Origin: Chloranthus sessilifolius
Lineage: Eukaryota; Streptophyta; Magnoliopsida; Chloranthales; Chloranthaceae
Assembly (NCBI GenBank): GCA_021018995.1
Contig: CM037593.1
Span: forward strand, 9,824,088 to 9,888,087
Direction of reading: 5' to 3'
DNA length: 64,000 nt
Shown in pieces: positions 27,246-61,413 of this stretch. Within the stretch, counting starts at the first letter, position 1. Each line of letters starts with the position of its first letter. Both the position numbers and the translations under genes were made by a program. A model generated the notes under the pieces. The model was not told where the DNA came from, did no database searches, and saw nothing but the letters and a program-made list of their open reading frames with translations.

Positions 27246-27249
27246 ATTG

Positions 27250-30624: not shown

Positions 30625-33600
30625 CTGCAAAAAAAACTCATTCTAAGTGCTTTACTTTATAAATGATTACTCTATATGACAAATTCCGTAAAATAATGCA
30701 AACAACATCAGACTGGTCAAAAGGCTAATCGATCCTATGAAATTTGGAAACGTTTTTAGCTTTGCTGAATGGGATCAAATCCAACTCTTTTTTCTTTTTT
30801 TTTTTTCCGTTTTCTTATTGTGTTCATTCCCTTCAATTTTCAATTAATCCCTTACTTATTACAAATGCCTTACTCATAAGGGTGAAACTGGGTCACTCAC
30901 ATTTGATCAGTCAAACCCTGTTTAGAGAGAGCTTCAGGCTTGTCAATTTTATTTCCAAGTACTAGCAATGGGATTCCACTCAATGAGGGCTTGCCCAACA
31001 GGTCGTGAAGTTCACTTTTTGACATGGCCAAGTTGTCACGGTCCGCTGCATCAACAACATACCTACAAGACATATAAAAAAATCAGGCCAACAAAAGACA
31101 GCTTGTATTTACTTTACGATGTAATTGAGATATCTACTCAAAGGAGAATTACAACATGGTCTTGGTGGTGCTTATAATTAATAATATTGGAGTCTCGCAC
31201 CAACTTTAGGGATTGCAAAATGCATTGAGTCAACCAAGACCCTACCAGATCGAACGTGATTAATAAACCTGGCTCGAGATTAGGTCCGGGTCTATTAGCA
31301 ATACCCCACTTTCATATATAATATAAAATATTATTTTCTAATACTTGTTTTTAGCTTTCTATGCCTCTCTATTCTTGTTCGTGATCTTTCAAACATTAAA
31401 CTTTCTACCAAAATCCTTCTTTTCATTCATGTTCCTAACTATTTGTTTATACAAGCATGATGAGAAGTACAATGCTAAATATTATACATAAGATATGTTT
31501 TAATAGTGTAAGCATGAATTTTGGGCTGGGTCCCATCTAAATGTTAAGTCTCTGAAAGAGACATTACTGAGACCCTTAATCTATACTTTATAGCCCTAAA
31601 GGATGGATATTTAATATGTTTTATGTAGTTTTAGTGATTTACAGGTCTGGAGATAGGCTACGCATAAAATAGCCCAAGAATCAGGAAAAAAAATGTGACA
31701 TTCGTGTGACCTTAGGGCATCCAGAACTTATCCCGGCTTACAAATCCATTGTGACCCCTTGTTATTTCACTCAAAGTTGTAAAGCTTGTTATCTTCTTTC
31801 CAATGCAGCAAAAATCGCATCAATTCGAATTCGCAATCAAAAGTCATGGCCGAAATACTAGGGCAGAGCATCTGGCGAATTCGCCCAAGCGACTTCGAAC
31901 TCGCCCGGGCAACCAGAATTCAAATTTCAACTAATTAAAAGTCGCATTTGAAGGTTTTATGGATTAAAAGTCGCCTAGGTGACTCAAAAAGTCGTCCGGG
32001 CGAGAATCATGGTGGAAGTCCTCTTTTGCACGGGATTTTGACTTCTATATCTTAGACAATAAACCCTGGAAGGGTTACAAAGCCTATAAATAGTTATTTT
32101 GTTTAAGGTTTCAGGAGTTCGACTTTTTGCTTTAGAGAAGTTTCTTTTTATTTTCTTTTTGGAAGCATCAGAAGCTAAAAGAGAGGGTAGACTAAAGCTA
32201 GAAATTCAACTTCACTTTTGGGATTTATTTAATGAACATTCATATTTCTTTATTTTGTTTGTCCTTGATCATGTTATGCTAATTTGTTATACCATTAGAA
32301 TCTAAAGAACTCCATCTAATTGAATATTCATAGATCAGATATAGGAATTGTTTATTACTGCTGAGTCACATATTCCAGATCCCTTATTAGGATCTCAATA
32401 ATGTAAGAGCAATAAACAATTAAAACCCTAATAGAGTCCAACCCTACCATTCTTATGTTTGATCTGTGAATATTCCTTCAAATGAAGTTCATTAGATCCT
32501 AATGCTATAATAAATTAGCCTAACATGATAAAGGACAAACAAAATAAAGAAATATGAATGACGTTTATTAAATAAATACCGAAAAGTGAAGCTGAATTTG
32601 TAGGAACAATCTTTAACTTTAATCTACCCTCTCTATTAGCTTTTGCGTGCTTTCAAAAAGAAAAGAAAAAGAAATTAATCTAAAGCCAAAGGTCGAACTC
32701 CCGACCCTAAACAAAATAACTATTTATACGCTTTGTAACCCTTCTAGGGTTTCTCGTCTAAAATATAGAAGTCAAAATCCCAAAATCCCATGCAAAATAG
32801 GACTTCCGTCGCGATTCTCGCTCGGCGACTTTTAATCCGTAAAACCTTCAAACTGGTCGCTCGGGCGAGACTTTTAATTAGTTGAAACTCGAATTCCGGT
32901 CGCCCGGGCATGTCTCAAGTCGCATTGGCGAATTTGCCAGATACTGCCTCTGGATTTCAGCCATAACTTTTGAAAACGAACTCGGATTGATGTGATTCTT
33001 GCGGCGTTGGAAAGAAGACAACGAACTTTACAATTTTGTGTGAAGTAGCAATTTTGCATGTCCAATGTTTCAGGGGTCAAAATGGAGTTGTAAGTTGGGA
33101 TAAGTTTTGGATGCCCTCAGGTCGCACGAATGTCACTTTTTTTTACTCTTGGGCTATTTTATGCTTTCCTTATCTGCAGACCTATAAATCACTCAAACTA
33201 CACAAAACATATTAAATACCTATGTTTTAGGGTTATAAAGTATAGATGTAATGTCTCTTTCAAAGACTTATCATGCAACCTGAACATCTTACTTAATAAT
33301 TGGAGATGCCCAAGGCGTACCAAAATAGATAACAGTGCACCTTACATAAATTTATGTTTAAAACACAATTTTGGTTCTCGTGTTTTATGGTCTCAATCAA
33401 AGTTCAAAATTTTAGTTTTCCGGGACATATCAACCAGCTCCAAAACGGATAGGTATCGGATGAAACGTATCATTTTGGACAACACATTGGTATGTATTAG
33501 GCGATAAGTACCAATATATTGGTCGATACATTCGAATGTATCGGCCCGACCTCCCTGAAAACCGATATGTATTGTTTTCGTCCGAAATTTTGAATGATGG

Positions 33601-39600: not shown

Positions 39601-42600
39601 CATTTTAACTAAAAATCCACACAACCATCCATTTCTGATAGGAAGCCGCTTTTTCAAGAACCATGTTTTGCCTGTATAAATTCTACAAAAGTGACAGATT
39701 TTTATATTAAATAATCCAACAAATTAGATAATTCTTGCAATTCAGCAGCAGTGTACTCATTGGTATCGATTAGGGCTGTCAACGGGTTGGGTCGACCTGA
39801 TACCCGACCCGACCCGATATTTAACCGGGTCAGATACATAAACTTGACTTGTCGAGTCGGGTTGACCAAGAGGTCTTGTCAGGTGGGTGTATATATATAT
39901 AGTATATTTTACCTGGATGGGTTGGGGTTTTGGGTCGGGCATCAGGTCAGGTCGGCTTGATCGCCATCGGGTCTTGTCGAGTGCACCAACGGGCAGTGTT
40001 ACCTTGGCACTTCTACTTTTGGAATTTTTGTCGTGCCAACACTTGGTGGCACCCGACAGGACCCGATTGCCCATCAATTCCCCCCGGGTTAGAAGAATTC
40101 ATCTCCGATGAATATTGGCCGTGATACTGCTCGAGGATATCCGGATTAATCTGTTGGAACTCTTATTTTGTGATCCACGTATTCTCTGAATCTGGCTTAT
40201 TCTTCCACTTAACAAGATACTTTTGAAATCGCCCTTAGTTTGTAGACACAATCGGATCTTCAAAAATATCCTCAGTTATCACACGAGAAGGACGTGCAGG
40301 CAGATGTAATGGAATAGGGAGGGAAACAGAGATAGTATCTGATGTGGAAGCATGGAACAAAATCTCGGCCGAGAATTCAAATTCTCGACCAAAATGACTC
40401 GGTTTCAGCCCCCACCGAAACGACATATTGGGTAAATTTTGGGTAGAGGTTGATATTTTTAAATTATCGCCGGAAATTTTAAATTATCGGCCAATAATTT
40501 GAAAATTCAATTTATCGGCCGATAATTTGAAGTTTCCGGCGATCATTTGATTTTTTTTTCAAATTTTTTTTAATGCTATAATTTTTTCCTTTCTTTCTCC
40601 TCTCCTCCAGTTTTTTTCCCACCTTTTCCCCCCTTGCTTCTTTAATCCCAGAAAAATAAAAAATTGGAGGAGAAGAAGGGAAAAAAAAAAGACCTACCTG
40701 GTTGTTGCGCCCTAGCCCCCCGGAAGGACTTCTATAGCCCGTTTTTTTTTTCCCTTTCTTCTTCTTCTTCTTACTCCGGTGAAAGTCATTTACACACAAA
40801 AAGGTGTTCAAATGATCATAAACCTCAATGGCTTAAGATGTGGGTGATCTGTAAAGTTAGGGAGACTTAAGCCATCTGATTTCAGTCATAATGGACCCAA
40901 AAATATTTTTTTATGGAGATTTAAGTCATCTGATTTGTGGAGTTAATATCAACCATTGTTTTCAATTTAATGGCTGATATTAAAGACCATTAATCAATGG
41001 TTTAAGATGGGCCCTAAAGGTACAGATTATAAAATTGGTTTAAGATGGGTTGTGTTTTTAAAAATTGAAACCCATAATTTTTAAGGAACCGACTCTTATG
41101 ACCGTCATTGGTGTTTAAATGATCTTACACCATCAATGGTTTAAGATGTGGGTGATCCGAACCATCAAAGTGACAGATCATATATTGAAGTGTAACATGC
41201 CTAAAAATAGTATATTAAGGAGATCTAACCATTCGATCCATTGACTATAATATCACCCGTTGCTTTTAGTTTTAATGGCTAATATTAAAGTTCGTCATTC
41301 GGATTGTTGACATCCACTTATCCGCATATTTCATTGGGCTGAGATTGCCATTCCAATTAGGGAGATTTAAGTCATCTTATTTCAGTCATGATAGATCCAA
41401 AAATATTTTTTTAAGGGAGATTTAAGTCATCTGATATTTTAACCCAAAAATATCAACCATTGTTTTCAATTTAATGGCTGATACTAAAGACCATTAATCA
41501 TTGGTTTAAGATGGACCCTAAAGGTACAGATTTTAAAATTGGTTTAAGATGGGATGTGCTTTTAAAAATTGAAACCCATAATTTTTAAGGGACTGACTCT
41601 CTTGACTGTCATTGGTGTGTAAATGATCTCTTACACCATCAACGGTTTAAGATGTGGGTGATCCGAACCATCAAAGTGATAGATCATATATTGAAGTGAA
41701 ACATGCCTAAAAATAGTAATTTAAGGAGATCTAAACCATCCGGATCCAATTACTATAATATCACCCGTTGCTTTAGTTTCATCAATCGGATTGTTGACAT
41801 CCACTTATCCGCATATTTCATCGGGAAGGGATTGCCATTCCAATGATAGATTGCTACTTGGACAATTTAGATTGATAACCGATAAATCAAAATTCAATGG
41901 TGTAAGATAAAAAAGACATTGTAGGGAAATTTAAGCCATCATAAATGGCCAAAAAAGGCATTTTACGCAGTTTTAAGCCATCTAATTGTGGACTATAATA
42001 TGAAAGAGTTTAAAAAAATCAAAAAAATAAAGTTTGGTCAAGTTCGGCAAAGTTCTAGCATATTTTCAAAATTTACCGAAATTTGACCAATTTACAGTTC
42101 GAGGTAAATGAAACCGAAACCGAGATTTGGATCCATGTGTGGAAGGTTCAGAAGGATTAGGTGGTGTAATTGCAGGGCCATAGGACGGAACGAGAACCTC
42201 CACATTGAAAGTCGTACTAATACCCAAATCTGGTGGTAAGTCTAGTACATAAGCATTAGGACCGGAATGCTTCAAAATCCTATAGGGTCCAACACTATGA
42301 GCCTATAACTTCTTAGCAATTCTTTGAGAGAAACGCTCAAGTCTATTTAGAACCATCACAAAATCACCCTTTTGAAATCCTTTGAACCTTCGATGAGAAT
42401 CTGCAGAAAATTTATATTTTTCATTACTCACATTATTTCTTCTTTTAATCTCAGCATGAAGTTCATGAATGCGATGTGCAAAAGAAGATGCAGACTCTAA
42501 CAACCTCTGATGAACTGATATTGGAATAAGATCTATAGGTGTCCTAGGTTTGTAACCATACACAACTTGAAAAGGATTCATCCCTGTGGTTCTATTAACT

Positions 42601-45600
42601 GAATTGTTATATGCAAACTCTGCGACAGGTAAGATGGAATCTCAACTTCTAACATGTTTACCTACAAGACACCTCAAGATATTTCCTAAACTCCGATTAA
42701 CAACCTCAGTTTGCCCAATGGTTTGGGATGATATGTCGATGAAAATTGAAGCCTAGTCCCTATTTTTTGCTACAATGTCTTCCAGAAATAACTGACAAAC
42801 TTAACATTTCTATCCGACACTAAAGTTTTAGGCAAACCGTGCAAACGAACAACCTCATTAAAGAAAAGTGTAGCAATATTACTTGCATCTGAGGTTTTCG
42901 AACAAACTATGAAGTGAGCCATTATCGAGAAACGGTCCACCACAACTAACACCGAACATGCTTTCGGAGGGTTTTAGGAAGGCCCAACACAAAGTCCATA
43001 GAAATATCTTGGTACGAAGCATGTGGCACAGGTAAAGATGTATACAACCCAGTGTTTTGCTTTCATTGTTTTGCCAATTGGAATACACGACATTGATTGA
43101 TAATCTTGACAACATCTTGTGTGAGATTGGGCCAGTAAAACTTATCTTCAACCAATGCAACAGTCTTGTCACGACCGAAATGACTGGCGACACCTCCAGC
43201 GTGTAATTCCCAAACAAGAAAATCTCGTAGAGAAGTGCGGAGAATGCACAAGCAGTGTTTCAAAAACAAATACCTATCCTGTAGGGTATACTTACACACT
43301 CTCTCAGGCTGGTCACTCACGAGAGAGGCGTACTCTTTTTCAAAATCTAGACACATAGGATAATCATCCAATAAATGCTCGATTCTAGTCACCTCAACAC
43401 TCATGGAGTGCAATGTATCCACCCTATGGCTAAGCGCGTCGGCAGCCTTCCTCATCCATTTGCATTTCATAGTTGTGTGTCATCTTAGAACCCGAGTAGC
43501 GAGTCTTGGTCACCATGGACACAAATGTGCATGTCAATGCTCTTAAGGGAATCCAAGCCTTGATGATCACCATGAATGAGAGGTTAAATGCTATGGAGGA
43601 AGTCCAACGGTTTTGAATGCCTCTAATGGTGAGCTTCTCGACTGCTTGGATCGGTTAGAAGGAGAAAAGGAACAACATGACCGACGCAATGGGCATATCG
43701 GTCCGCGCTTTGAGCGCGACGGTCGGTTTGAGGGTCAGAATCGGAATCAAAGAGAAGTGGTTCATCGCCAAGATGACTACGACCCGGATGAGAAACTCCT
43801 CAAGAATGTACGAGTTGAGTTTCCGACCTTCGATGGAAGAATGGACCCTAAGGTCTTCCTCGATTGGGTCTCCGATATGGATCACCACTTTGAGTGGTAT
43901 GGTATGGACAATGAGCGGTGTGTTAGACTTGCCAAGATGAAGCTCATTGGCCAAGCTACACTCTTTTGGGTCAACGTCGAGCGTATGCATGCGAATGCGG
44001 GTCGTGCTCTCATTACCCATTAGGAGGACATGAAGGAATGACTTACGGAGAAGTATGTCCCTTTATCATACTATCAACGCCAACTTAATCAATGGCAAAA
44101 TTTACGCCAAGATAGTATGCCTGTGATTGAATACATTGGCAAATTTGAGTTCATGATGAGAGCCAATGTGTCGGAAAATCCTCAAGTCACTCTTTCTAGG
44201 TTCCGCACCGGATTGCGAATGGAACTACAAAAGGAGTTGATCTCCCACCCCGTTGACACTCTTGAGTGGTGTTAAGCCGTTGTGCAAGACCTTGAGTGGT
44301 ATTTAAAAATAACGTGGTGAGACGATTTGAGCCGTATACCGGTGGCCATAGAACCAGAGAAGGAAGGCTTAGTGCCAAGAACCCACCTCCCAAACCTATA
44401 CGACCCACTCCTACAAATGTAAGGTTTGACAAAGGGAAAGTGTAGTGGGTGAATCCTCAAGGGGTGACACTCAAACCAAGTTTTATAAATGTTATGGGCT
44501 TGGCCATTTTGCCGCTGAATACCCAATTCTCCACTCCGACCTTATGTTTTAGTACAAAGGTGAACTCTTAAGTTGTTCAACCCATTTTGCATGTCGTGAG
44601 TTCAACTACTTTTGGGAGCTCAAAATTTAGGGCGGCCTCATGATCTGAGAATAAAATAAATTCTTACGGTAATAAGTAGTGTTTCAAAAACTAGAGAGAT
44701 TGTACTACCGCATAGAATTCCTTACTGTACGTAATTGATGGGGACATCTGATTTAAAGAACCACCATGATCTATCGAAGGCGAAAGAAGAGTACGAAAAT
44801 ATTTTAAAGGCTCCTAACTGAAGAATGAAGGCGTTCTAAAGAACTGAAGCACGAACATCCGTGCTCACGGCATCCGTTTCCATAGACTCCGTAACATTAG
44901 GATGGACGTCCGTGATTTTGAGGCTTTCTGTTTTGTGTACATCGTAGACGACGAACGTCCGTGAACAGAGAACGGATATCCATGAGCACAAGATGGAATC
45001 CGTGAGTTTCGTCCGCAAGTTGACGGAATTACGAATTTTTAAGTAAAGCTTGACGTTTTAAAGGTTTAGGACTTTTTTTATTGTGAACTTATGTTTAGTT
45101 AGGGTTTGTTTGCCAATATAAAGGCATTGTAAATACAATTTTAAGTAGCGATAGGTTAATCAAAACTGCTTTTACATATTGAGAGCTTTTATCAAAGTTT
45201 TCTTTGATGGTGCGATTCTCTCAAAACTTGGAAGAGTGATACTTCTTTCCACGTGCGGTTTAGTGCAAGGCCAACTTTTCTATCCTTCTTATCTACTTTT
45301 ATCTTCATCTTACGTGTAAGTTCTTGAATAATCTTCTAGTTATTTTTATTCCTAAGATCTTAAATTAATTGTGTGTTTTGCATGCTCGATATTTTCAAAA
45401 TTTAACCTAAGATCGCTCAACCGTCCGAACACAGGATTTCTTCTATTTGAGCTCTTTGACTTTGTTGACTCGAAAAGTTTGGAATCGGGAACTCTTTCTT
45501 CTTCCACTTGACCTCAAAAATCAAATAAAATAAATTAATAAAAAGAATTAAGAAATGAGACTATTTATAGTGTCTTTTTTTAACAAAACATACTCTAAAT

Positions 45601-48600
45601 AGGACTTAACAAATTTACTCTAAATAGAATTTAAAGTCCTAAGTTATGTCAGACACCTAGATACATAGATAACATAATTAGCTACCTAGGTGGCTAGAAA
45701 AAATACTTAGCCACCTAGGTGGCTAGAAAACATACTTAGTCACTTAGGTGGCTAGAAAAATATACGTAGTTATCTAGGTTGCTAGAAAAGATACTTAGCC
45801 ATCTAGGTGGCTAGAAAATATACTTAGTCACCTAGATAGCTAAAAAACATACTTAGCCACCTAGGTGCCTAGAAAAACTATTTAGCCACCTAAGTGGCTA
45901 GAAAAATATACGTAGCCACCTAGGTGGCTAGAAAATATACTTATCCACCTAGGTGGATAGAAAAAATACTTATCCACCTAAGTGGTTAGAAAAACATACT
46001 TAGCCACCTAGGTAGCTAAAAAAAATACTTATCTACCTAGGTGGCTGAAAAACATACTTATCCACCTAGGTGGCTAGAAAACATATTTAGCCACCTACGT
46101 GCCTAGGTGGTTATGAGAAAAGACTTGCGTACGCAAGAATAATCTTTTCTCAATCTGCGTGATGGCGAAAACTTATGCATCTCTCACAGCCATTCATTTC
46201 ATGAAAACTTTACGGGAACCGTAGGATCATAACTTCTATAATCGCTACCGTAAATCTATAAATAGGAGATCCTTCCTCATTACCAAGGAAAGAAAATTCT
46301 AAGACGAGACCTCTGCCGAAAATATCTCCGACTCTTCTGATAAAAGACTTTAGGGTATCTCCGAAATTCTGGCTATTCTTTTTTTTTTTTAAAAGTTGAC
46401 GGGAGGAATAAGTTAGGGTTAAGACATTTAAAATAAGGGCTACGGCCCTTACCTAAAAGTGATAGCTTAGAATAAGAGCTACGGCTCTTATCTAAGTAGA
46501 ATTTATGATTGAAATTTGGGATTATGCGTTACAACTCATACCCAATTTCTTATGTACTTAGAAATAATTAAGCCATATGGGTACGACCCTGGGCATAACT
46601 CCTAGTACATTCGAATTGCAAACACAAATTTGACATATATACAGGTTGCAATCACTAACCCAAAGAACGATTTCGGACTATGACACCCAAAATATTCATT
46701 TACGACGACTCATTTACCGAATCTGAATCGTGTCCCGAAATTAGAGTTTTCCTCACGGTTCGGCTCATCACTCCCTCAAATGAGGGTTTAGACCTCAATC
46801 TCGAAATCAGAAATTCTTTCACAATGTACTTGTTGACTTTTGGTCAAACGATCGTAATGCGAGATCGTAACGAGATCCAACAGTGGATTTATTGCATATT
46901 GACTAGATCTTGTAATTTTGGTCAGATCTAACGGTGGACTCATTGACTTTTGGTCTAACGATCATAATGTGAGATCGTAACGAGACCCAACGGTAGATTT
47001 ATTGCATATTGACCAGATCTTGTGATTCTGGTCAAATCTAACGGTGGACTCGTTGACTTTTGATCAAATGATCATAATGTGAGATCGTAACGAGATCCAA
47101 CGGTGAATTAATTACATATTAACTAAATCTTGTGATTCTAGTCAAATCTAACGGTAGAATCGTTGAGTTTTGGTCAAATGATCATAATGTGAGATTGTAA
47201 CTAGATCCAACAGTAGATTTATTGCATATTGACTAGATCTTGTGATTTTGGTCAGATCTAACGGTGGACTTATTGACTTTTGATCAAACGATCATAATGT
47301 GAGATCGTAACAAGATCCAACGGTGGATTTATTACATATTGACCAAATCTTGTGATTATGGTCAAATCTAACGGTGGATTCATTGACTTTTGATCAAATA
47401 ATCATAATGTGAGATCGTAACGAGATCCAACGGTGAATTTATTGGATATTAACCAAATCTTGTGATTCTGGTCAAATCCAACGGTAGACTCATTGACTTT
47501 TGGTCAAACGATTATAATATAAGATCCAACAGTGGATTTATTACGTATTGACCAGATCTTATGAATTTGGTCAAATCCAATGGTGGAATAGTTGACTTTT
47601 GGTCAAATGAAAATACCGTGAGATCGTAACAAGATCCAACAGTGGATTTACCATACATTGACCAAATCTTAGGATACTTATCAAATCCAATGGTAAAATC
47701 ATTCTAAAATCATCTATGATCATCAAACTTTAAGGAATTTAGCGATATTTAACTCATGATTATACACTATCACTGAAAGTGATAACTCCTTTGATAACCA
47801 GTTGCCCGAAGAATGGATTTGATATTCGAACTCATCTTTGAGACCAGAGAAAAAGAATTCGTTTTGAGACTCGTCCACGAGTTTCTTGCTCCAGTAATGA
47901 TTCGTGCTTTTCGATCAAATAGAATCGGCTTTTAGATGAGGGGTTCTCCCATCCGTCGTCCCCTATTTCATATTTCTCAAATCTCCGATGAAGATAATCT
48001 ATTATGCATCTATCCCATGACCGATTGAAGATGTCGATGAAGACTTAGAATTAGAATTTTAGTTTTATTTATTTCAAAGATGTAATTACGTTATTTTTTA
48101 TTTAGTAGCTTTTAATCAGAGGTATTCAATTTTAATGTAATTAACGGGGAATCAATTACAATACCCAGAAGTGTAAGGCCCTCCATTTTAATAAAACTCT
48201 CTCCTAGCGAGGGGAAATTTGTTATGATTGATTTGTGTTAGATTTATATCCTATGCAAATTTGTTGTTTACAGACTTATAAATACCTCGAATCCATTTAT
48301 TGTTAATTCTGCATGGATTCGAAAGAACCACTTGTGAGTTCGTTCGAGGCCCAAAACTATTGGAGATCGAGTTGTTCGCTAAGTACCCCAGTCTACTAGA
48401 TCTTTATAGGGAACGTACGGCAAAAGTAACACTATTTTGGGCTAGATAAAAATTGTTTAATTGAAATTCTCTTTATTTTCTGTGATAACTTGTTAGGAAA
48501 TTCATATGAATTCACAATTAATCTCAGCCTATCATATTTGCATTGTATTAGTTTCTGCATCAAATTTGGTATCAGAGCTATGCAATGTAGTCAAATGGCA

Positions 48601-51600
48601 TATGCGACTCTATGCGATGGCATAGGGTCATTGCACATGCAGGTCGCATATGTCATTATGTCATGGCATTAAAAAAAAAAAAACCAAAAAATCCTCAAAA
48701 ATTCCCGAAGTTTCCCATATTGAAAAGTAATATGTTTGTGTTAATTTTGTGCTCTATTAATTTTTTAGTGTCTAGAATGAGAAATAAAAGTATATAATAT
48801 AAGTATATAACCTACAAGTTGGAAGGTAAAATATAAAAAATAAGTTCAAATAGTACAAAAATAAAGTGGATCATACAAAAGAAAAGGAAAGAGACTCAAA
48901 ACATACCTTTGAGAGTTGTGGTATGCATTAGGAAGAGAAACCTCCTATTAATAGGGCATGGGTAAGCCTAGAAGCCAAAAAAAAAAATCAATGTTGGAAA
49001 AGTATGTCATGGCATACACTCTATGCGACGACGTACTATTGCATATGTGATGGTATGCCATGGCATACAATTGTATGCGATGGCATACTTCCTGGATCGC
49101 ATATGCCATCATGGCATATGCGATCGCATAATGGCATATGCGATCGCATATGACAATAGCTCAGCTATGATTGATTTGTTTTAGATTTATATCCTACGCA
49201 AATTTGTTGTTTATAGACTTATAAATACTTCGAATCCATTTGTTGTTAATTCTGCACGGATTCGAAAGAACCACTTGTGAGTTCGTTCGAGGCCCAAAAC
49301 TGTTGGAGATCTAGTTGTTCACTAAGAACCCCAGTCTACTAGATCTTATAGGGAACGTACGGCAAAATTAACACTATTTTGGGCTAGATAAAAATTGTTT
49401 AATTGAAATTCTCTTTATTTTATGTGATAACTTGTTAGGAAATTCATATTAATTCACAATTAATCTCAGCCCATCATATTTGCATTGTATTAGTTTCTAC
49501 ATCAGATTTGGTATCAGAGCATTGCAATGTAGTCAAATGACATATGCGACTCTATGCGATGGCATAGGGTCATCACACATGCGGGTCGCATATGCTATTA
49601 TGCCATGGCATAAAAAAAAATATCCAAAAAATTCCCAAAAATTCCCAAAGTTTCCCATATTGAAAAGTAATATGTTTGTGTTAATTTTGTGTTCTATTAA
49701 TTTTGTAGTGTCTAGAATGAGAACTAAAAGTATATAATATAAGTATATAACCCACAAGTTGGAAGGGAAAATATAAAAAATAAGTCCAAATAGTATAAAA
49801 ATAAAGTGGATCATACAAAAGAGAAGGAAAGAGACCCAAAACATACCTTTGATATTTGCGGTATGCATTAGGAAGAGAAACCCCCTATTAATAAGGCTTG
49901 GGTAAGCCTAGAAGCCAAAAAAAAAAATCAATGTTGGAAAAGTATGTCACTCTATGCAATGACGTACTATTACATATGCGATGGTATGCCATGGTATACA
50001 ATTGTATGCGATGGCATACTTTCTGGATCGCATATGCCATGATGGCATATGCGATCCACCGCTTTCTGATGGCATATGCGATCGCATATGACAATAGCTC
50101 GGCTATGTCAGTTTAAGATCGTCAGTGTACATAGAGGTTCTAGGTTTCATTTTCGATTGTGTCTTGCATCATTATGGATTCCTCAAAAGTCGAACCCCTT
50201 ATTAATGAACTTGCAACTAAGTTGACTACGAGTCAGGCAGATCTCCAAGCCCAGATGCTTGATCACCATATTGAGTTACAAAATCAATTGCTTGATCAAC
50301 AAGCCCAAATGAGACTCTAGTGACCCGTGTCGAGGAAATAAATAGCGTTATCACTGATGACCATTTTCGAGTCCACATCAACGACCGTAGAAGAGATGGT
50401 CCTCATTGACGCAATCTTCCACCCAATCAGGACGACAAAATCAAGAAGTTCGTCAAGATGGATGCTCATGCTTTAGATAGAAAAAGACAACCTAAAGTCT
50501 ATCTAGAATGGGTGACTGGAATAGAAACCTATTTTGATTGGTATGCCATGTTCGAGGAGCGCAAAGTCATGTTTGCCAAGGTTAAGCTTATGGGTCAGGC
50601 CAGGCTTTAGTGGATGGGTATAGAGCGTCGTGGACAATTTCAAGGTCTCCTTCTCATTTTCACGTGGGCAGACATTAAAATCCAACTGAATGAGAAGTAT
50701 GTTCTTCTTTCCTATGATGAACGTCTTCTTGATCAATGGCAATCACTTCGCCAAGGGAATATGTCAGTCACAGAGTACATTGATAAATTTGAGGACTTGC
50801 TGTTCCAGGCTAATGTGGATGAACAAGACAAAGTTACCTTGTCTCGATTTCGAATGTGCCTTCACCCATAATTGCAAAGGGAACTTATTCCATATCATGT
50901 TACCGAACTAGAAGAGTGTTTATCTAAAGTGGAGCAGTCAGAACAATACCTTAAAAGCCCCCAAACCAAAACGTTTCGATGCTAGTGGGTTTAGTTACAA
51001 GTCTAACTATTCTGAGTCTAAGCCTAATGTCAATACCCATTCGGCTAGGTCCAATTCACTTGCCACGCCGGTGACTAAAGCTAATAGGGGTAAGAATCCA
51101 ATGTTAGAGGGCCCCAAGGGTAGGGGTCAAAACAAGTGCTACAAGTGCCATGGCTTTGGATATTTTGCAGGACAATGCCCTTCCCGAAACTTGTTCATAA
51201 CAAAGGAAAGTGAAGATGAACAGGAAGATGGGGAAGTAGAAGTTTAAAATCCCGAATCGTTCCTTAGTGATGAGGAGGATCATGTAAGGGAACAGACCGT
51301 AACTTGTCTTAGGGAAGTCTCCTATCTCGTTGAGGACGATAATGCCTCGCAGGCTCTTGTGGTTAAGTGTGCTCTAGCCCAATCGAAGGAGAGTAGCGGC
51401 TGGCGTAGGGATAGCATCTTTTATACTGTAGCAAAGTGTGGTGAGAAAGCTTGTAGAATCATAGTCGATAGTGGAAGTTGTATCAATGTTGTTTCAGAAA
51501 GCACAGTTTCTCGCTTGGGACTCTCACTCGCGACCTTATAAAGTAGCATGGGTCGACTCGTCTTCAATCCCAGTTTCACATAGTTGTTAGGTTCTTATAC

Positions 51601-54600
51601 AGTTTGATTCATATAAGGACACCTTATGGTGCGATGTTGTGCCTATAGATGTTAGGCATATCATCCTTGCGAGGCATTGGTTGTACAATAAGGAAGTTGC
51701 ATTGTTTGGGAGATCGAACGTGTGTTCTTCATTCACAAAGGAAATAAGATTAAGATAAACCCTTTACATCCTAGAGCGCCTACCGTGAAAACAAGAGAGT
51801 CAAATGATAAAGGCCTGGTTGAGAGAGAGAAGACAATTAAGGTCATTATTGTTAGCCCTTTAGAGTTTGAACAAGGTGTTAAGGAAGAGGACATTGTCTA
51901 TGTTCTTGTTACAATGGAGTCACCCAAAGAGTCGAGTGTTAAGTTTCCGAAAGAGGTTGGACCTATGATGAGGGAGTTTCAGGATCACTTTTCCACGGAC
52001 CTACCGAATGAATTACCACCTTTAAGCAGGGCCAGCCCTGAGAATTTGGGGGCCCAAGGCGAGCTCCTAACATGGGCCCCCTCATTCATATTAATTTTTT
52101 TTTTTAAATTGCCACAATTCTTTTTTTTTTACAAATAAAATAATACTCGATGCTTTTAGCTTACAAATATCTCAATATTCTATTCTATTGTTTATAATTT
52201 GAAAATGCAACATACAAATTAACGAAAGCATATATTGAAGAAACATGCAACACAAAAAAGAGAAAAGAAAAATGGTAGAATGTACCCGACGGATCGAGTA
52301 ACCCAACCATTAACATTTTTTATTATTTTAATTGCCATTGAATCTTTAACTGCCATTTTTTAGCATTTTAACAATCTCGAAAAGTTTCAAAAATAGGTTC
52401 ATTGGATAAGTCTCGTCGAATAGATCAAAATTGATAGGTCATGCAAAAAATGGAATTGTAGCGAGCCTAAAATTGCCATTTTAAGTTATGGTCATTTAAT
52501 AATAAAAATTTGTGTGTATATATATATAAGGGTACCTCTAAACGCGCCCACATCCCAGACCCATTGAAAACCATTGAATCCTTCGAATCATATGATGAAG
52601 ATCATTTTTCACCCATATCTTTCACTCAATACATCTTGAGGTCATGGTGCACCCATCAAATTGTCGGTTTGTGATTTAACCTATCATAGATCCCAAAAAA
52701 TGGCCATAAAATCACATTTGAGCGTGATGTGTGTCATATGATTCAAGGGCATTTTTAGGGAATTTGTGAGACATAGAATAAAAAATTGACCGTTTGATAC
52801 GTGGGTCATGATCTGAAGATCTATTTTGTGAAAGATATGTATGAAAATAGATTTCCATCATCTCATTCAAAGGAATCAATGGTTTTCAAGGGGGCTGGTA
52901 CATGGGTGCTTTTGGAGAACACATGGGCGTGTTTAGAGGTACCCTATATATAAAAGGATTTGGTCAAACAAATCTGGTTCGATCAAAATTGGGCCAAAGA
53001 ATCTATTGGGACAATACATATGGTGGGCCTGGCCCAGTGAGGCCAATGACCCAACCAATGACCTGCACTGTCCCAGCCGAGACCCGATCAATGACCCATT
53101 AAAAAAAATGCAAATATGGGACCTGAGAAGAGTTGAACCCACAACCCATTGGGTAAAAAGTAAAGCAACAATAGTCACTTAACCAACAAAGCAATTAAAT
53201 TGATTCAACGCTATTGTACATTAAAAATTATATTAAGCAACTGAGCTTAATTTGGGGGCCCGAGGAAACCGCCTCTTGGACTTTGGCCCAGGGCCGGCCT
53301 TGCCTTTAAGGGATATTCAACACGCCATTGATTTGATTCCCAGTTCTACTTTACCTAACTTGAGACATTATCGCATGAATCCATCCGAACATTCGGAGTT
53401 GAAAAGGCAAGTTGATGACCTTCTCTAGAAGGGAAAGTAGGAATCCATGTGTCAGCGCTACTAACACCCAAGAAAGTTGGGTCTCGAAGGATGTGCGTCG
53501 ATAGTCGCGCCATAAATAAAATCACGGTTAAGTATCGATTCTATATACCGTGGTTGGACGACATGTTGGACATGATAGTTGGTGCCACAATATTTTCAAT
53601 TTTTTATTTGAAGAGTGTATACCATCGAGTTCGTCCCGGGGACAAATGGAAAACTGCCTTTAAAACCAAAGATGGTTTATATGAATGGTTTGCCATGCCT
53701 TTCGAGTTCTCAAATACCCCAAGCACATTTAAGCGGATCATGACGCAAGTGTTGAGGCCTTTTATAGGCAAGTTTCTCATGGTTTACTTCGATGATATCC
53801 TGTTTTATAGCTGTGATAAGGAACAACACTTAGAACATTTAAGGCAAGTTTGTTTGACTTTCTGAGGAGAGAAGTTATACACAAACCTAAAGAAGTGTAC
53901 TTTCATGACGACTAGTGTTGTTTTCTTAGGGTTTGTCATAACTTCTTAGGGTTTGCCGTAACCCTGAAAAGGTCAAGGTTATTATGGAGTGGCATAAGCC
54001 TAAGAGCATTCACGGACTCCCATATGCCAATAATTTTTTTCCATGGTTATTGACTTTGATTATTTATTACGAACTTAAAGTTGTTTTTTAATGTTTGTCT
54101 TACTGCTTGAGCATGTATAATTATCAATTGATGGATCATGGATGTTAATATCACTTAATTGTCGATATCCAATTAGGAGTGCAAATTAAAACCGAATCCC
54201 AAAAACCGACCAAAACCCAAGCCAGCTCGAAACCGACTGAAAACCAACATCGAACCAGTTCGGCCCGTTCAGTTTCGGTTTCGATAGCTGAAAACCAAAA
54301 ACAGGGGGGAAGGATGAGAAAACCGACAAAAAATCAAAGAAAACCGAAAACTTAAAACACCCAAAAAAAATTCTTCAACAAAATGAAAGTTTAAAAAAAA
54401 AAAAGGATAAAGAAAAACCAAAAACCGAACCGAACCGACCGAAACCGAAATTTGATCGGTTCGGTTTCAGTATAGACCGGTGGGAATTTCGGATAAACAA
54501 AACCAAAACGTTTCAGTTCAGTATAGCAGGAACCAACCCGAAAACCAAAGTTTTGGCTTTGGTTCGAATTTACACCCCTATATTCAATAGTACATTATAA

Positions 54601-54633
54601 TGGTAAACAAATACGCTAAAAATTAAAATTTAA

Positions 54634-54687
<54 letters not shown>

Positions 54688-57600
54688 TTAATGGCTTTCG
54701 GCATTTTCAAGGAATTTTCCTTTTTTACCGACTTTGTCACTTGCCGTCTTAAACGTGTATCCATACTTTGTCAATATGGATCTGATGTTTTCATGTGAGC
54801 TTTCTCAACGGTCTATAGCTCAAATTAAACTGGCCTTTCTCCCAATATGTCGAAAGAATTGAAGGCTGTTAATATGTGATTGACAACTGGAATATTTACT
54901 GGTGCTTAGGCGCCAATTCAATGCGAATACAGTTCAGTATGAAAAAATTGGGCGGTGGTAACATTACTTCCAGAATGCGTGATTTTGAGTCTTTTGTGGA
55001 TGATCGTAAACTTATGGATATTCTGATGGGAAGAGAGCATTTTACCTAGTCCAATCTACAAGAAAACAAAATAATGTGTCGATTGGACATTCTAAATACT
55101 TCATCATGGGAGGACCATTTTCATAATATTCTGTTTGCTGGCTTGTCTCATCCTGTGTTGGACCACATCCCGGTTTTACTTCATTGCTCGACATGAAGAG
55201 AGTTTGTCCCTTCTAATTCAAGAATATATGGCTTGAGAATGAGACCTTCGTAGGGCTGATCCATGCCTGGGGGACAACGCAATATTCATAACTACGTTAA
55301 AGAAGCTCATAATGGAAATCAATAAGTGGATTACTGAGGTTTTCAGTCAAGTGGGGAAATTTAAAGAAAAGTGCTTAATGACCTTCAAATCAGGGAACGA
55401 TGGGGGGAACTTAGGTCTCTCTCCTTGGCGATGAAGAGGGGCTATCTTAAAAATCCATATGAACAGAAATGTCTCAAAGAGGAGAAGAGGAGATATCATG
55501 ACATAGAAGGCTAGAGTCAACTGGCTACAAGCAAGTCACAAGAACACTAAATTCTTTCACATGACGGTGAATGCTCGACAAAAAGTGAACACCATCCAAC
55601 ACATTACTCTGAATGTGCGTAGGATCGAAGATACTGAGGTGGAAATGGTTAACTTCTATCATCGTTTGTACAAAGATGATGGTTGAGTGAGAGTGGTTCC
55701 AAAGGATGCGTTGCTTGAGTCCATATCATTTGAGAGGCATTGAATTTGGAAAGAGGTTTTGAGGATGAAATCAAGATTGCACTTTTTTACCCTAGCAGGG
55801 ATAAAAGCCCCGTGTCCATATGATGCACCATGGAATTCTATAAGGTGTTCTGGCCACTACTTCAAGTTGACCTTCTGCAGTTTTTTTCATGAGTTCCATA
55901 GCAAAGCACATGTTGGGAAGACTCTCAACTCTACGTCACCACCCTCATAATTAACCGTCTATGTGTGGGGTGGGGGCCTGGGGTCCACTGAAAAATTATC
56001 TCCTCCTTCTCAACGGGTTTTTGTTCAAGGATGACAAATCCTCGATAGGCCCATCACTACACACACAGAGATTGATTTGAGATACACATGCAAGTAATCG
56101 GGCATTATTGAAAAATCAATATGGAAATAGCTTACGACAAGGTGGATTGGACTTTTCTATATGCTTGGTTGTATGGGCTTTGAGCACAGATGGAAAAGAT
56201 CATTAAGGGCATATGTTATTCTTCAACTTCGTTCTCCATTCTTACCAACAACATGCCAAAGGGTTATTTTTAAGAGCTCCAAGGGTCTTCAACAGGGTGA
56301 TGCCCTCTCTCTGATTTTGTTCGATATAATGGCTAAACTCTTAGCATGTTGCTTGAAAAGGGTTCCGAGCTAGGTAACTTTAATGGCTTTTGTGTCGCTT
56401 CAAACAGGCCTCACGTTACTCACCTTTAGTATATTGCTGACACTATGATAAGTTGTGGCTCTAGCCAACTGGAACTCAATAGTTTAAAGGAAATTTTGAA
56501 ATGTTATGAGGCCCTGTCCTGGTAGAAAAACTACCTTGTTTAGAATTTGCATGATGATATGCTTCTTGCCAGTCTCATTTTCTCTATTGCTTGTCGATGA
56601 ATAGGGTTTAGGGTAGGGTTTTCTTCTACTTATCCAGGGCCCGAGCTACCTTTGTGTATCAGAAAACCAAGATATGCCCTTCGGGGTCCAGTGGTGGAAA
56701 GCTTTGGGAGTAACCTCGCTACTTGGAAGGTAAATTTTTTGTCAATTGGGGGATAGGTCACACCATTAAAGCAGCTCTATCAATTCTTCCTGTCTACTAC
56801 ATTTCTATGTCCATGTGCCCTAAGAGCACCGTTGACAAAATGGAAAGATTAGAAAGGAAGGAAAGAATGACAAGAAAAAATATCATCTCATCAATGGGCA
56901 TCAGCCAATTAGCTAAGGAAAGAAGGGGTTTGGGAATTACTATTTAGGAGGCTCAAAGAAATGAACCATGTTCTCATTGCTTTGGAGAATTAGGGAAGAA
57001 ACTGAGTTGTGGTGGGTACTAAGTCTTTCAGATAGATATGGTGATGAAAAGCAGTTGGAGAATGGCTCTGTGAGGTTTCGTTAAATCGTCCTTTGATAAA
57101 TGCACTCGTTTCAAATGAGAGAGTGGTGATCAAATTTTCTTTTCGGATAATGCATGGCAGGGTGAGAGCTCACTTTGTTAGATTTTGAACTCATTCTCAA
57201 ACGTGCGTCAAAGAGAAATTGGACTATAGCTGAGGTGGCCACAAATGTTGATTCAAGAACTGTGTGGTATATCCAACTTGCAAACACCTTAGAGAGAGTG
57301 GATGCAATATGCTTATTGGACTGTTGTGTATTGGGAGGGGTTTCAACAAGCAGGGGAAATGAAGATGAGAGAATTTGGCCTTTGGAATCCAAAGAAGTGT
57401 TCACTGTGAAGTCTTTCAATAGATTTATATGTTGAAGACCACTGAGATCTTGTGATTGAGTATCCATCTGGAAGGTACATGCACCCCTAAAGGTGTTTTT
57501 TTTCTGCTGGACCGTGGCCTAGAACAATATCCTCCCCATTAACCATCCTCAACTTGAATCAACAATCTTGTTGATCACTTGCTGCTACACTGTGGCCATG

Positions 57601-58705
57601 TTATAAGTTTTGGGAAACTTTCTTATCGGTGTTTGACAGTTCTTGGTGGATGCCATGGACTTTTGTTGAGGCTTTCACTCCTAGGACAGGGACTCCTTTA
57701 GTGAGGCTAATCGTGTCCCAGTGGCGCTCTAATGTGATCGGAGACATCAATGCACATAATGGGTGTGGTTAGGAGGAACAGAGCCTTCATGATTAGGTGG
57801 TCTGAAAGGGATAAGTTTTTAAGGAGGGTTTCAGCTGAGAAAATCACAGTTTGCTGGTACAATGTTGGTGTGTTAAGTCCTTAGTTCCTATCTGGACTAT
57901 TTGCTGTCAGGAGGTATTTTTGGGCTACCATTTTTGTACTGCTCGTGTGTTAACTTTCTATTTGTTTTTCTGACAATTGGGTCAGTTGGTAGGTCTGCTA
58001 ACCTGCTTTCTTTCTTTCTTTCTTTTTTTTTATGTATCTCCTTTTGATTAATAAATTTTAATTTATCAATTAATAATAACACTAATACATAATAATGATA
58101 AAAACCTACACGAATTGCCGAATTGTAATCATTTAAACCCCTGTAAAATCAAAGTAAGACGACATCTTGTGCAGGGAAAAAAAGTTAAGCAAGTAAGAAA
58201 CATACACAATGGCAGAGACTGCACGACAGTAACGCTCCCACATGCTCCGAAATCTGGGTTGACCTCCAAGATCCCACAACTTTATTGTAACATTTCCTTT
58301 AGTTACCTTACGCATATTGAATCCAACCTGTAGAACACATTACATGCAAAAGCAATGCATCTTACCATTAAACATCATAATAGCTTGCAATCCTAACATT
58401 TCACAGAAAGATATAAGACATTCTACAACTAGGATGCCATCTGATTTACGGGTATACAATAAGAACATATCTGCATTCCTTGGCATGACAAGATTACTCA
58501 CAGTGGGAATCATGTCTTCACTATATCCACCAGTCTACAAAGGAGATCCAAAAACCAGTGTCTTAGCATGTTTTCATAACGAATATAGCTGCTAATTTGA
58601 AGATATAATGAGTTTTTACTTACTGCAACAACATTGACAAGTGAAGTTTTTCCGGCATTCTGAAGCCCTATCAAAGAGAGCTCCATTTCTTGTTTGAAGA
58701 AGAGG
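30507..58705 (-). CDS. ARL8: ARL8 small GTPase gene (exons 2-6), with a 27-kb intron
   Basis: ADP-ribosylation-factor-like GTPase 8, a small GTP-binding protein of endolysosomal/vacuolar membranes. Exons: 58705-58624, 58534-58502, 58327-58206, 31062-30901, 30624-30507. Joined, they give 517 nt in one frame, starting [15 protein letters not shown] and ending [10 protein letters not shown]. All GTPase boxes are present: GLQNAGKTS (P-loop), the Thr of IPTVGF (switch I), DLGGQ (G3), NKID (G4) and SCK (G5). Introns have GTAAGT, GTGAGT, GTATGT and GTGAGT donors and TAG, CAG, TAG and CAG acceptors, of 89, 174, 27,143 and 276 bp. The giant intron splits a Val codon (GT|G), and the protein is continuous across it. 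About 12 N-terminal residues (plant form near MGLWEAFLNWLR) are missing; exon 1 was not found to 64000, so intron 1 exceeds 5.2 kb. No stop or frameshift: the gene looks functional. Confidence 0.95.
30901..31062 (-). CDS. ARL8: ARL8 exon 5
   Basis: 162 nt: [20 protein letters not shown] through [20 protein letters not shown] to LTDQ. NKID is the G4 guanine-specificity box. The acceptor is TCTTGTAG after a T-rich tract; the donor is GTGAGT. Confidence 0.96.
31545..33270. repeat. Giant foldback: two ~850-bp inverted arms with a tiny loop
   Basis: The left arm starts TAAGTCTCTGAAAGAGACAT and the right arm ends ATGTCTCTTTCAAAGACTTA. The arms pair through TAAAATAGCCCAAGA, GGGCATCC, CGCCCGGGC, CCTATAAATAG-like and ATTTCTTTATTTTGTTTGTC blocks right up to about 32360 and 32410, leaving a loop of a few tens of bases. 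Identity is roughly 75-80% by eye. No coding region and no clear target duplication. It lies in the ARL8 giant intron, 480 bp from exon 5 on the transcript's downstream side. It may be a foldback transposon. Confidence 0.85.
33275..34425. other. ARL8 intron DNA with a (CT)n microsatellite
   Basis: A (CT)n run lies at about 34086-34111 inside a pyrimidine-rich stretch (34040-34240). A reading frame there follows the repeat, so no gene is called. A 38-bp direct repeat, TTTTTTTTAAATTTAAGAGG and beyond, occurs near 33833 and 33877. Confidence 0.5.
34427..34550. repeat. Dispersed repeat, copy 2 (other copy at 21762-21885)
   Basis: Same family as the copy at 21762. Here the left neighbour is TTTGTG rather than the hAT element, so this locus shows what the other one looked like before the hAT inserted. 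Confidence 0.7.
34560..36915. other. ARL8 intron DNA without a recognisable element
   Basis: AT-rich. At 35270-35430 there are GGGCC/GGCCC phrases like those of the hAT-related repeats but without clear ends. Nothing else could be supported. Confidence 0.35.
36920..37235. repeat. Tandem repeat, ~125-bp unit, about 2.5 copies
   Basis: Units share GTACCACTCTTTTTCTTCC, CCTTCATCTTTTATGGA and GTGGAATGGTTGTGTAATTA followed by GCATTA. It lies in the ARL8 giant intron. Confidence 0.7.
37240..39765. other. ARL8 intron DNA without a recognisable element
   Basis: AT-rich with only short phrases of note: a self-complementary AATAATAATAGTTATTATTA at about 39435-39455. No gene or bounded element is visible. 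Confidence 0.35.
39771..40055. mobile_element. hAT-like repeat with a left end only
   Basis: It starts TAGGGCTGTCAACGGGTTGG, with GACCCGACCCGA and GGGTCGGGCATCA phrases, and its right part matches 21893-22110. No mirrored right end is seen; the sequence runs into the Gypsy fossil that follows. Confidence 0.5.
40040..43490 (-). mobile_element. Gypsy chromovirus fossil: integrase to chromodomain, with a foreign block inside
   Basis: Minus-strand remains of a Ty3/Gypsy element: zinc-binding part of integrase (about 43470-43070), catalytic core (about 43000-42770), C-terminal part (42580-42060) and a chromodomain (about 40250-40085, [16 protein letters not shown]). Between about 40440 and 42000 lies unrelated sequence including a tandem duplication. 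Broken in many places and old. The integrase part is an inverted copy of 25780-27245. Confidence 0.78.
40859..41835. repeat. Tandem duplication of a ~490-bp block
   Basis: Copy 1 is about 40859-41350 and copy 2 about 41351-41835. Shared phrases include GGAGATTTAAGTCATCTGAT, TCAATTTAATGGCTGATA, TTTAAGATGTGGGTGATCCG and TTGTTGACATCCACTTATCC. Identity is about 90% by eye. No coding region. It lies inside the foreign block within the Gypsy fossil. Confidence 0.85.
43500..44545 (+). mobile_element. Gypsy gag fossil
   Basis: A retrotransposon gag-like region ([19 protein letters not shown], then [18 protein letters not shown]) ending in a zinc-knuckle remnant (KCYGLGHFA). It faces away from the integrase fossil on its left and runs into the LTR on its right. 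Broken in a few places. It is related to, but not the same family as, the gag at 50170. Confidence 0.72.
45655..46110. repeat. Minisatellite of about fifteen 29-30-bp palindromic units
   Basis: Consensus ACTTAGCCACCTAGGTGGCT followed by AGAAAAAT. Each unit contains the 18-bp palindrome TAGCCACCTAGGTGGCTA, more or less intact. Units differ at a few positions, so the array is not recent. Confidence 0.92.
46829..47700. repeat. Tandem array, ~110-bp unit, eight copies
   Basis: Units begin TTGACTTTTGGTCAAACGAT at about 46831, 46940, 47054, 47164, 47273, 47384, 47495 and 47591, each with GAGATCGTAACGAGATCCAA, CGGTGGATTTATTGCATATT and GACCAGATCTTGTGATT. TTTTGGTCAAAC and its neighbours are locally self-complementary. 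Confidence 0.92.
48225..50105 (+). repeat. Tandem duplication of LTR end plus leader (two ~940-bp copies)
   Basis: Copy 1 is 48225-49167 and copy 2 is 49168-50105. Each has a 338-bp LTR-end block (48225-48562 and 49168-49504; 16 differences counted, about 95% identical), the primer-binding site TGGTATCAGAGC, and a leader rich in GGCATATGCGATCGCATA-type palindromes. The junctions share CTATG/TTATG, fitting unequal exchange. Confidence 0.82.
52027..53302. mobile_element. hAT-type element nested in the Gypsy fossil (1276 bp)
   Basis: The ends are CAGGGCCAGCCCTG and, read inward from the right, CAAGGCCGGCCCTG (12 of 14 alike). The flanking 8-bp duplication CCTTTAAG is perfect (52019-52026, 53303-53310). 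GGGGGCCC phrases follow both ends. It has no transposase. It itself hosts the Mutator-type MITE at 52530-52944. Confidence 0.93.
52530..52944. mobile_element. Mutator-type MITE with long inverted arms, nested in the hAT (415 bp)
   Basis: The left end GGGTACCTCTAAACGCGCCC pairs with the right end, read inward GGGTACCTCTAAACACGCCC, and pairing continues through TTGAAAACCATTGA and ATATCTTTCAC to give arms of about 150 bp. The flanking 9-bp direct repeat TATATATAA (52521-52529 and 52945-52953) fits the Mutator superfamily, though the site is low-complexity. Confidence 0.88.
54174..54580. mobile_element. hAT-type MITE (407 bp) with 8-bp target duplication
   Basis: The left end TAGGAGTGCAAATT and right end AATTTACACCCCTA are inverted. 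Flanks TATCCAAT (54166-54173) and TATTCAAT (54581-54588) agree at 7 of 8. The body is full of AACCGAACCGAACCG-like phrases, as in the element at 20848. Confidence 0.78.
54641..54683. repeat. (TA)n microsatellite
   Basis: About 43 bp of nearly pure TA, between the hAT MITE and the LINE. Confidence 0.9.
54940..57965 (+). mobile_element. L1-type LINE, ORF2 remnant, decayed
   Basis: Remains of the second ORF of a plant L1 LINE. The endonuclease end is seen at 54970-55185 ([45 protein letters not shown]). A linker with RRYHDIEG follows at 55480. The reverse transcriptase lies at about 56130-56480: [21 protein letters not shown] and a degraded catalytic box YIAD-TMIS where YADDT is expected, so one Asp is lost. 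Further on come [20 protein letters not shown]-like sequence (56740) and a zf-RVT finger remnant (DHLLLHC, about 57570). Many stops and several frame changes; no poly(A) tail is clear at the 3' end. It lies antisense to ARL8 in the giant intron, ending 240 bp from exon 4. Confidence 0.85.
58206..58327 (-). CDS. ARL8: ARL8 exon 4
   Basis: 122 nt: [20 protein letters not shown], then [20 protein letters not shown] and the first two bases of a Val codon. DLGGQ is the G3 box. Acceptor TTCTACAG, donor GTATGT, which opens the 27,143-bp intron. Confidence 0.96.
58502..58534 (-). CDS. ARL8: ARL8 exon 3, a 33-nt microexon
   Basis: Exactly 11 codons, [11 protein letters not shown], in phase 0 on both sides, with acceptor CTTTGTAG and donor GTGAGT. 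It carries the switch I Thr, so it cannot be skipped without losing function. Confidence 0.94.
58624..58705 (-). CDS. ARL8: ARL8 exon 2
   Basis: 82 nt: end of a Ser codon, then [20 protein letters not shown] and SLVNVVA. It contains the P-loop. Acceptor CTCAATTTCAG, donor GTAAGT. The preceding exon with the start codon is outside the window. Confidence 0.95.

Positions 58706-61381: not shown

Positions 61382-61413
<32 letters not shown>

What the first reader, a model, noticed from the sequence alone, without database searches (positions are those of the whole stretch)
31063..58205. A 27,143-bp transposon-filled intron in a conserved small-GTPase gene (ARL8)
Exon 4 ends in the first two bases of a Val codon with a GTATGT donor, and exon 5, 27 kb away, begins with the third base after TCTTGTAG. 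The joined protein is continuous ARL8. The intron carries Gypsy fossils, a LINE, hAT elements, MITEs, a giant foldback and several tandem arrays. Introns this long are rare in most angiosperm genes, and the gene should still be spliced across it since no lesion is seen in the coding parts.
Basis: partly seen in the sequence, partly recalled or inferred. Interest (0 to 1): 0.88.

Follow-up and report, generated by a model that had tools for sequence, protein, structure and literature searches.

The report
Transposon-swollen intron in plant ARL8 gene
A conserved plant gene (ARL8) appears to be interrupted by a 27,000-letter intron that contains old transposons; this is a clear example of a well-known kind of intron growth rather than a new phenomenon, and splicing across it has not been shown.

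Summary
The core observation holds. On the minus strand, ARL8 exons 2-6 join into an unbroken 171-residue small GTPase. Intron 4 (58205 down to 31063) is 27,143 bp, GTATGT...TTGTAG, phase 2, without N. The position is conserved: 10 of 120 listed homologues carry an insertion at this junction, and a Musa protein repeats an exon-5-sized unit. The intron holds two Gypsy remnants, a foldback and tandem arrays. The LINE rests on one sub-threshold hit; no hAT transposase domain was found. Exon 1 (13 N-terminal residues) was not found in the window; upstream lies a Copia-type gag element, so intron 1 is at least 5.3 kb or exon 1 is lost. 'No lesion' is shown for exons 2-6 only.

Best explanation: a conserved spliceosomal intron enlarged by insertions and still spliced. 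Longer introns are published for angiosperms (101,025 bp in an MSH1 gene), so surprise is low. No transcripts, reads or relatives' genomes could be consulted; the window's own assembly could not be searched. New member of a known kind; interest about 0.2.

The parts
58624..58705 (-). ARL8 exon 2 (82 bp; [27 protein letters not shown])
   Evidence: translation and splice sites
58502..58534 (-). ARL8 exon 3 (33 bp)
58206..58327 (-). ARL8 exon 4 (122 bp), ends in GT of a Val codon before donor GTATGT
31063..58205 (-). intron 4, 27,143 bp, GT-AG, phase 2
   Evidence: position conserved in plant ARL8
30901..31062 (-). ARL8 exon 5 (162 bp; holds the NKID motif)
   Evidence: repeat of an exon-5-sized unit in Musa protein P0002
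30507..30624 (-). ARL8 exon 6 (118 bp to and including TAA)
31546..33269 (.). giant foldback, arms about 0.8 kb, 78% complementary, about 0.5 kb inside the acceptor end (outer limits approximate)
   Evidence: inverted match 31569-32351 / 33257-32446; arms aligned further out
40121..45463 (-). Gypsy remnant with H2C2 (43236-43066), rve (42964-42725, below Pfam cut-off), SH3_Tf2-1 (42368-42186) and chromo domain (40240-40121); reverse copy at 24.9-27.3 kb, 83-84% identical
   Evidence: outer limits approximate
43928..44218 (+). Retrotrans_gag fragment, opposite in strand to the surrounding Gypsy remnant
40857..41779 (.). 424-bp direct repeat pair, 90% identical, lying between the SH3 and chromo pieces
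45666..46106 (.). 29-bp tandem array, about 15 copies
46832..47670 (.). tandem array, 110-bp unit, about 7.5 copies
48223..50107 (+). two head-to-tail units read as LTR plus leader, each with an exact match to a tRNA-iMet-type primer-binding motif (48567, 49509)
   Evidence: motif recalled
50572..53940 (+). Gypsy remnant: Retrotrans_gag 50572-50838, RVT_1 53467-53940, with about 1.2-1.3 kb of other sequence between 52.1 and 53.4 kb
   Evidence: extent of the interruption judged from the ORFs
57400..57534 (+). possible LINE 3' remnant (zf-RVT, below Pfam cut-off)
   Evidence: E 0.011
60842..63073 (-). Copia-type element upstream of exon 2 (open gag stretch 63073-62357, polypurine tract near 61355, 507-bp putative 3' LTR 61348-60842), presumably inside ARL8 intron 1
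   Evidence: LTR and PPT recognised from recall

Best explanation
This is a conserved phase-2 GT-AG (U2-type) intron of ARL8 that has been enlarged to 27 kb by transposon insertions, tandem-array growth and a foldback, and is still removed by normal splicing of GTATGT to TTGTAG. Shown: exon order, splice sites, frame, conserved position, repeat content. Inferred: that the transcript is spliced, that exon 1 exists upstream of 64000, and that the intron is silenced as heterochromatin without blocking elongation (as in IBM2-dependent genes). Unspliced or prematurely ended transcripts would give a GTPase cut 23 codons after exon 4, lacking the NKID and SCK motifs, so the gene needs the long splice to work.
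For: Canonical GT-AG ends and exact phase match. Among the 120 listed homologues, 16 aligned in one piece with an insertion of 4 or more residues; the 16 insertion sites lie within about one residue of one of the window's four junctions, 9 of them at residue 79/80, i.e. this intron (8 intron-like, 1 a repeat of an exon-5-sized unit in P0002). Of five proteins that align in several pieces, two (P0063, P0066) have an insert at 80 and three look like repeated or fused copies. All 92 of 92 positions that are at least 97% conserved in 89 clean proteins are kept, 62 before and 30 after the intron. In a simulation of drift at half the K2P of 0.064 between the two LTR-leader units, all 92 stay unchanged in 0.2% of 4000 runs, or 3.8% at half that rate. 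The Pfam matches in the intron that pass their cut-offs are all domains of retrotransposons.
Against: No transcript or read evidence. Exon 1 was not found in the window. For exons 5-6 alone the drift simulation is not decisive (13% and 37% of runs unchanged), and 5 of the 6 residues that differ from the commonest residue lie there, two of them nearly private (M92 in 0 of 89, G102 in about 1%). The simulation ignores insertions and deletions, starts from the window's own sequence, and assumes the two LTR-leader units were identical when they arose inside this intron.
Confidence: 0.82

Rival explanations
1. The locus is a decaying ARL8 copy: exon 1 or the promoter is lost or cut off by the upstream Copia-type element, and another ARL8 paralogue does the work. 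The exons are intact only because the damage is recent.
For: Exon 1 (MGLWEAFLNWLRS in P0005 and P0063, LL for FL in P0066) was not found by short motifs in 58706-64000 or in the six frames of the window; a Copia-type gag lies upstream; exons 5-6 carry two nearly private residues. Drift of exons 5-6 alone is not excluded.
Against: All 92 highly conserved positions are kept; no stop, frameshift or splice-site loss in exons 2-6. Such a record over all five exons is unlikely under drift since the LTR-leader duplication (0.2% or 3.8% of runs). A first exon more than 5.3 kb upstream is unremarkable in a gene with a 27-kb intron.
Confidence: 0.1
2. Assembly artefact: the block 31-58 kb, or part of it, does not lie between the two exon groups in the plant.
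For: Repeat-rich sequence with a reverse Gypsy copy at 25.8-27.3 kb (84% identical to 42.0-43.4 kb) and repeated LTR units is the sort of place where assemblies err.
Against: No N in the window; the Gypsy and LTR copies differ by about 6-18%, so long reads would tell them apart; the two exon groups share strand, order, phase and frame.
Confidence: 0.05
3. The two exon groups belong to separate transcripts (gene split in two, or joined only by trans-splicing).
For: None direct; the read-through product would end 23 codons past exon 4.
Against: Each half lacks GTPase motifs found in the other, both halves are conserved, and they lie in order on one strand. Splitting of one gene into several is a known annotation error caused by long introns in grapevine.
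Confidence: 0.03

Closest known systems
TE-expanded introns of Chloranthus and magnoliids (PMC8626473; passages seen)
   Same: LTR elements named as the major contributor to long introns; 876 of 2,184 orthologues exceed 20 kb in C. spicatus; introns above 40 kb are discussed
   Different: species of the window not known; ARL8 not named in the passages seen
MSH1 long introns in orchids and gymnosperms (PMC10487979; passages seen)
   Same: conserved plant gene with TE-rich giant introns, longest 101,025 bp in V. planifolia (Vanilla, genus name recalled)
   Different: a different gene; many introns enlarged
Heterochromatic TE introns needing IBM2/EDM2 (PMC7145194 rice passages; starts of abstracts)
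   Same: TE-bearing intron inside a transcribed gene; failure gives early termination in the intron
   Different: chromatin state and dependence on IBM2 not testable here
Extremely large introns of Arabidopsis (PMC5575664; passages seen)
   Same: mainly made of transposons and spliced out, shown by RT-PCR up to 11,602 bp
   Different: 27 kb is more than twice as long
Camellia sinensis ARL8 protein P0066
   Same: a DUF4283 stretch (E 7.5e-14; link of DUF4283 to retroelements recalled) annotated at the same intron position of ARL8
   Different: another sequence; probably an annotation that reads part of the intron as exon (inference)

Membership tests
ARL8 subfamily of ARF GTPases | closest sequence match among ARF-family proteins is ARL8 | tested here: met
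   ARL8A/8B entries (two deposited as ARL10B/C) at 258-262 bits, ARL1 next at 114 bits; plant ARL8 proteins up to 95% identical. The sister paralogue Arl18 was not tested.
ARL8 subfamily of ARF GTPases | nucleotide-binding motifs [21 protein letters not shown] (motif roles recalled) | tested here: met
   all present in the joined translation
ARL8 subfamily of ARF GTPases | N-terminal segment MGLWEAFLNWLRS | tested here: inconclusive
   not found in the window by short motifs; would lie beyond 64000
U2-type spliceosomal intron | GT-AG ends, frame kept, conserved position | tested here: met
U2-type spliceosomal intron | spliced transcript | not testable with these tools
   no plant RNA data at hand
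TE-expanded plant intron | transposon sequence inside the intron | tested here: met
   two Gypsy remnants by domains, LTR units; total TE share not measured
TE-expanded plant intron | shorter intron at the same position in relatives or ancestor | not tested
   no plant genome DNA in the collections used; the homologues give position, not length
IBM2/EDM2-dependent heterochromatic intron | H3K9me2 and non-CG methylation over the intron, early termination without IBM2 | not testable with these tools
   would need bisulfite, chromatin and mutant RNA data

The most novel reading that the evidence does not exclude
The 27-kb intron acts as a chromatin-controlled switch: when its Gypsy-derived heterochromatin is intact, full-length ARL8 is made; when it is relaxed, transcripts end inside the intron and give a truncated GTPase without its NKID and SCK motifs, tying vacuolar traffic to transposon silencing.
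Probability: 0.08. Interest if true: 0.5.

Novelty: new member of a known kind. Interest (0 to 1): 0.2.

Why it matters
It is a clean case of a short, conserved gene (about 0.55 kb of coding sequence) that seems to tolerate an intron some 50 times its coding length, useful as a test locus for how plants transcribe and splice through transposon-rich introns. It does not change what is known about intron growth.

Tried and rejected
hAT: no transposase domain in six-frame Pfam scans of the whole intron at E up to 0.01, nor in a laxer scan (E up to 1) of the three minus-strand frames of 34.5-40.0 kb; non-autonomous hAT elements were not tested. A DNA_binding_1 hit (E 0.0018, below its cut-off) was taken as chance. 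Host genes nested in the intron: no non-transposon domain above cut-off. Rfam: 0 matches in the window at gathering scores. Exon 1: the motif search gave three incidental short hits (59983, 62906 minus strand; one NWLR in a + frame near 16525), judged unrelated by their context; a strongly diverged exon 1 would be missed. Recursive splicing: three AG|GTRAGT/GTATGT-like sites on the sense strand (near 56425, 49848, 48908), not compared with chance and not pursued. Intronic polyadenylation: AATAAA is equally frequent on both strands (34 and 34), so no hint from that count. Species identification with the Copia-type gag gave only three unnamed relatives of 37-50% identity among 171 candidates. 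The stretch 20.0-28.2 kb, minus strand, gave no Pfam hit in three frames. Target-site duplication of the foldback: none recognised by eye. Conservation counts and the drift simulation drew on the 89 of 120 listed proteins that align as one piece without gaps from residue 1 to at least 168; the other 31 were dropped, and the 120 are the best of 3,679 matches, so conservation is measured on close relatives.

Full report
Observation. On the minus strand the exons are 58705-58624, 58534-58502, 58327-58206, 31062-30901 and 30624-30507, with introns of 89, 174, 27,143 and 276 bp, all beginning with GT and ending with AG. The joined sequence reads through to TAA and gives 171 residues. Among solved structures the five best sequences are ARL8A/8B entries (two deposited under the names ARL10B and ARL10C) at 258-262 bits; the next, ARL1, scores 114. 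Plant ARL8 proteins match at up to 95%. The window contains no N.

Missing first exon. Complete plant ARL8 proteins begin MGLWEAFLNWLRS or nearly so before LFFKQEM (P0005, P0063, P0066). That peptide was sought by short motifs in the six frames of the whole window and not found; three incidental short hits had unrelated context. The 5.3 kb upstream of exon 2 instead hold a Copia-type gag (PF14223, E 3.8e-14), a polypurine tract and a putative 507-bp 3' LTR. Intron 1 is therefore at least 5.3 kb long, or exon 1 is gone, or too diverged for the motifs used.

Is the intron position real? Of 120 listed homologues (those that bear a name are land plants), 16 align in one piece with an insertion of at least 4 residues. 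Their insertion points are at residue 27/28 (5), 38 (1), 79/80 (9) and 134 (1), matching within about one residue the four junctions predicted from the window. One of the nine, Musa P0002, repeats a 54-residue unit that is exactly the size of exon 5. Five further proteins align in several pieces; two of these (Zingiber P0063, Camellia P0066) have an insert at residue 80, and three look like fused or repeated copies and were set aside. So 10 of 120 show an apparent intron remnant at the position of the 27-kb intron. The Camellia insert matches DUF4283 (E 7.5e-14), which I recall as a domain frequent in plant retroelement proteins. A eukaryote-wide study mapped intron positions in Arl8 and its sister Arl18 (PMC8358228, passages only), but its figure was not available to me.

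Intron content. Six-frame Pfam scans with X at stops found: on the minus strand an integrase zinc-binding domain, an integrase core (below its cut-off), an SH3 domain and a chromo domain between 43.2 and 40.1 kb; on the plus strand a gag at 43.9-44.2 kb, and a gag at 50.6-50.8 and reverse transcriptase at 53.5-53.9 kb. A reverse copy of the first Gypsy lies outside the intron at 24.9-27.3 kb, 83-84% identical. Two head-to-tail LTR-plus-leader units at 48.2-50.1 kb each carry an exact iMet-type primer-binding motif (motif recalled) and differ by K2P 0.064 over 934 aligned sites. The foldback and tandem arrays are as described. The LINE is supported only by a zf-RVT hit of E 0.011, below cut-off. 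No hAT transposase domain was found. The total share of transposon sequence was not measured.

Is the gene still used? All 92 positions that are at least 97% conserved among 89 clean proteins are unchanged, 62 before and 30 after the intron. Simulated drift at half the K2P of the LTR-leader pair (substitutions only) leaves all 92 intact in 0.2% of 4000 runs, or 3.8% at half that rate; for exons 2-4 alone the figures are 1.3% and 11%, for exons 5-6 alone 13% and 37%, so the downstream half does not prove selection by itself. Five of six residues that differ from the commonest residue lie downstream of the intron. Reading on from exon 4 meets a stop after 23 codons, before the NKID and SCK motifs, so function needs the splice.

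Comparison with the literature. [quoted passage not shown] spicatus: there 876 of 2,184 orthologues exceed 20 kb, mean intron length is about 3.35 kb, and introns above 40 kb are discussed (PMC8626473, passages). An MSH1 intron of 101,025 bp is reported in V. planifolia (PMC10487979, passages). In grapevine, TEs make up about 80% of expanded intron space, and long introns cause split annotations (PMC3058033, passages). In Arabidopsis an 11.6-kb TE-rich intron was confirmed by RT-PCR (PMC5575664, passages). IBM2 is needed for proper mRNA through heterochromatic introns at dozens of rice loci, and its loss in Arabidopsis causes early termination in such introns (PMC7145194, passages). One search for ARL8, Arabidopsis and intron gave six papers, none of whose titles or abstract starts concerns a long ARL8 intron.

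Verdict. A conserved intron enlarged by transposons is the best explanation. It is a good specimen, not a new kind, and transcript, long-read and upstream evidence are still missing.

Noticed in passing
window 60842-63219, minus strand: Copia-type element with a 238-codon open gag stretch (PF14223), polypurine tract and putative 3' LTR, but only about 1 kb and no ORF of 90 aa or more where pol should be: it looks gag-only and non-autonomous. Its three listed relatives are 37-50% identical and unnamed.
   Followed up: partly
window 4436-5263 and 8050-8490, plus strand: MULE transposase (E 1.7e-16) and SWIM domain, followed about 3 kb on by sub-threshold DUF7745, DUF1985 and plant-mobile-domain matches, amid dense tandem repeats with a TGATATCAG core at 6.3-9.1 kb: possibly one large gene-carrying MULE.
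   Followed up: partly
window 48223-50107: LTR plus leader duplicated head to tail (units of about 943 bp), each with its own primer-binding motif, in front of a Gypsy gag: an unusual tandem LTR arrangement.
   Followed up: partly
window 37516, minus strand: A third exact match to the 12-base iMet primer-binding motif, in the intron but away from any recognised retrotransposon domain; perhaps the trace of another LTR element.
   Followed up: no
window 25808-27274 and 41969-43444: Inverted Gypsy copies, 84% identical, flank a 14.7-kb block that contains ARL8 exons 5 and 6; recombination between them would invert the gene's end.
   Followed up: no
protein P0002 (Musa balbisiana): The annotated ARL8 protein contains an exon-5-sized unit of 54 residues twice in tandem: exon duplication, perhaps mutually exclusive exons, in banana.
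   Followed up: no
window 43928-44218: A gag fragment on the plus strand sits inside a minus-strand Gypsy remnant, in a 1.2-kb stretch missing from the copy at 25.7-25.8 kb.
   Followed up: no
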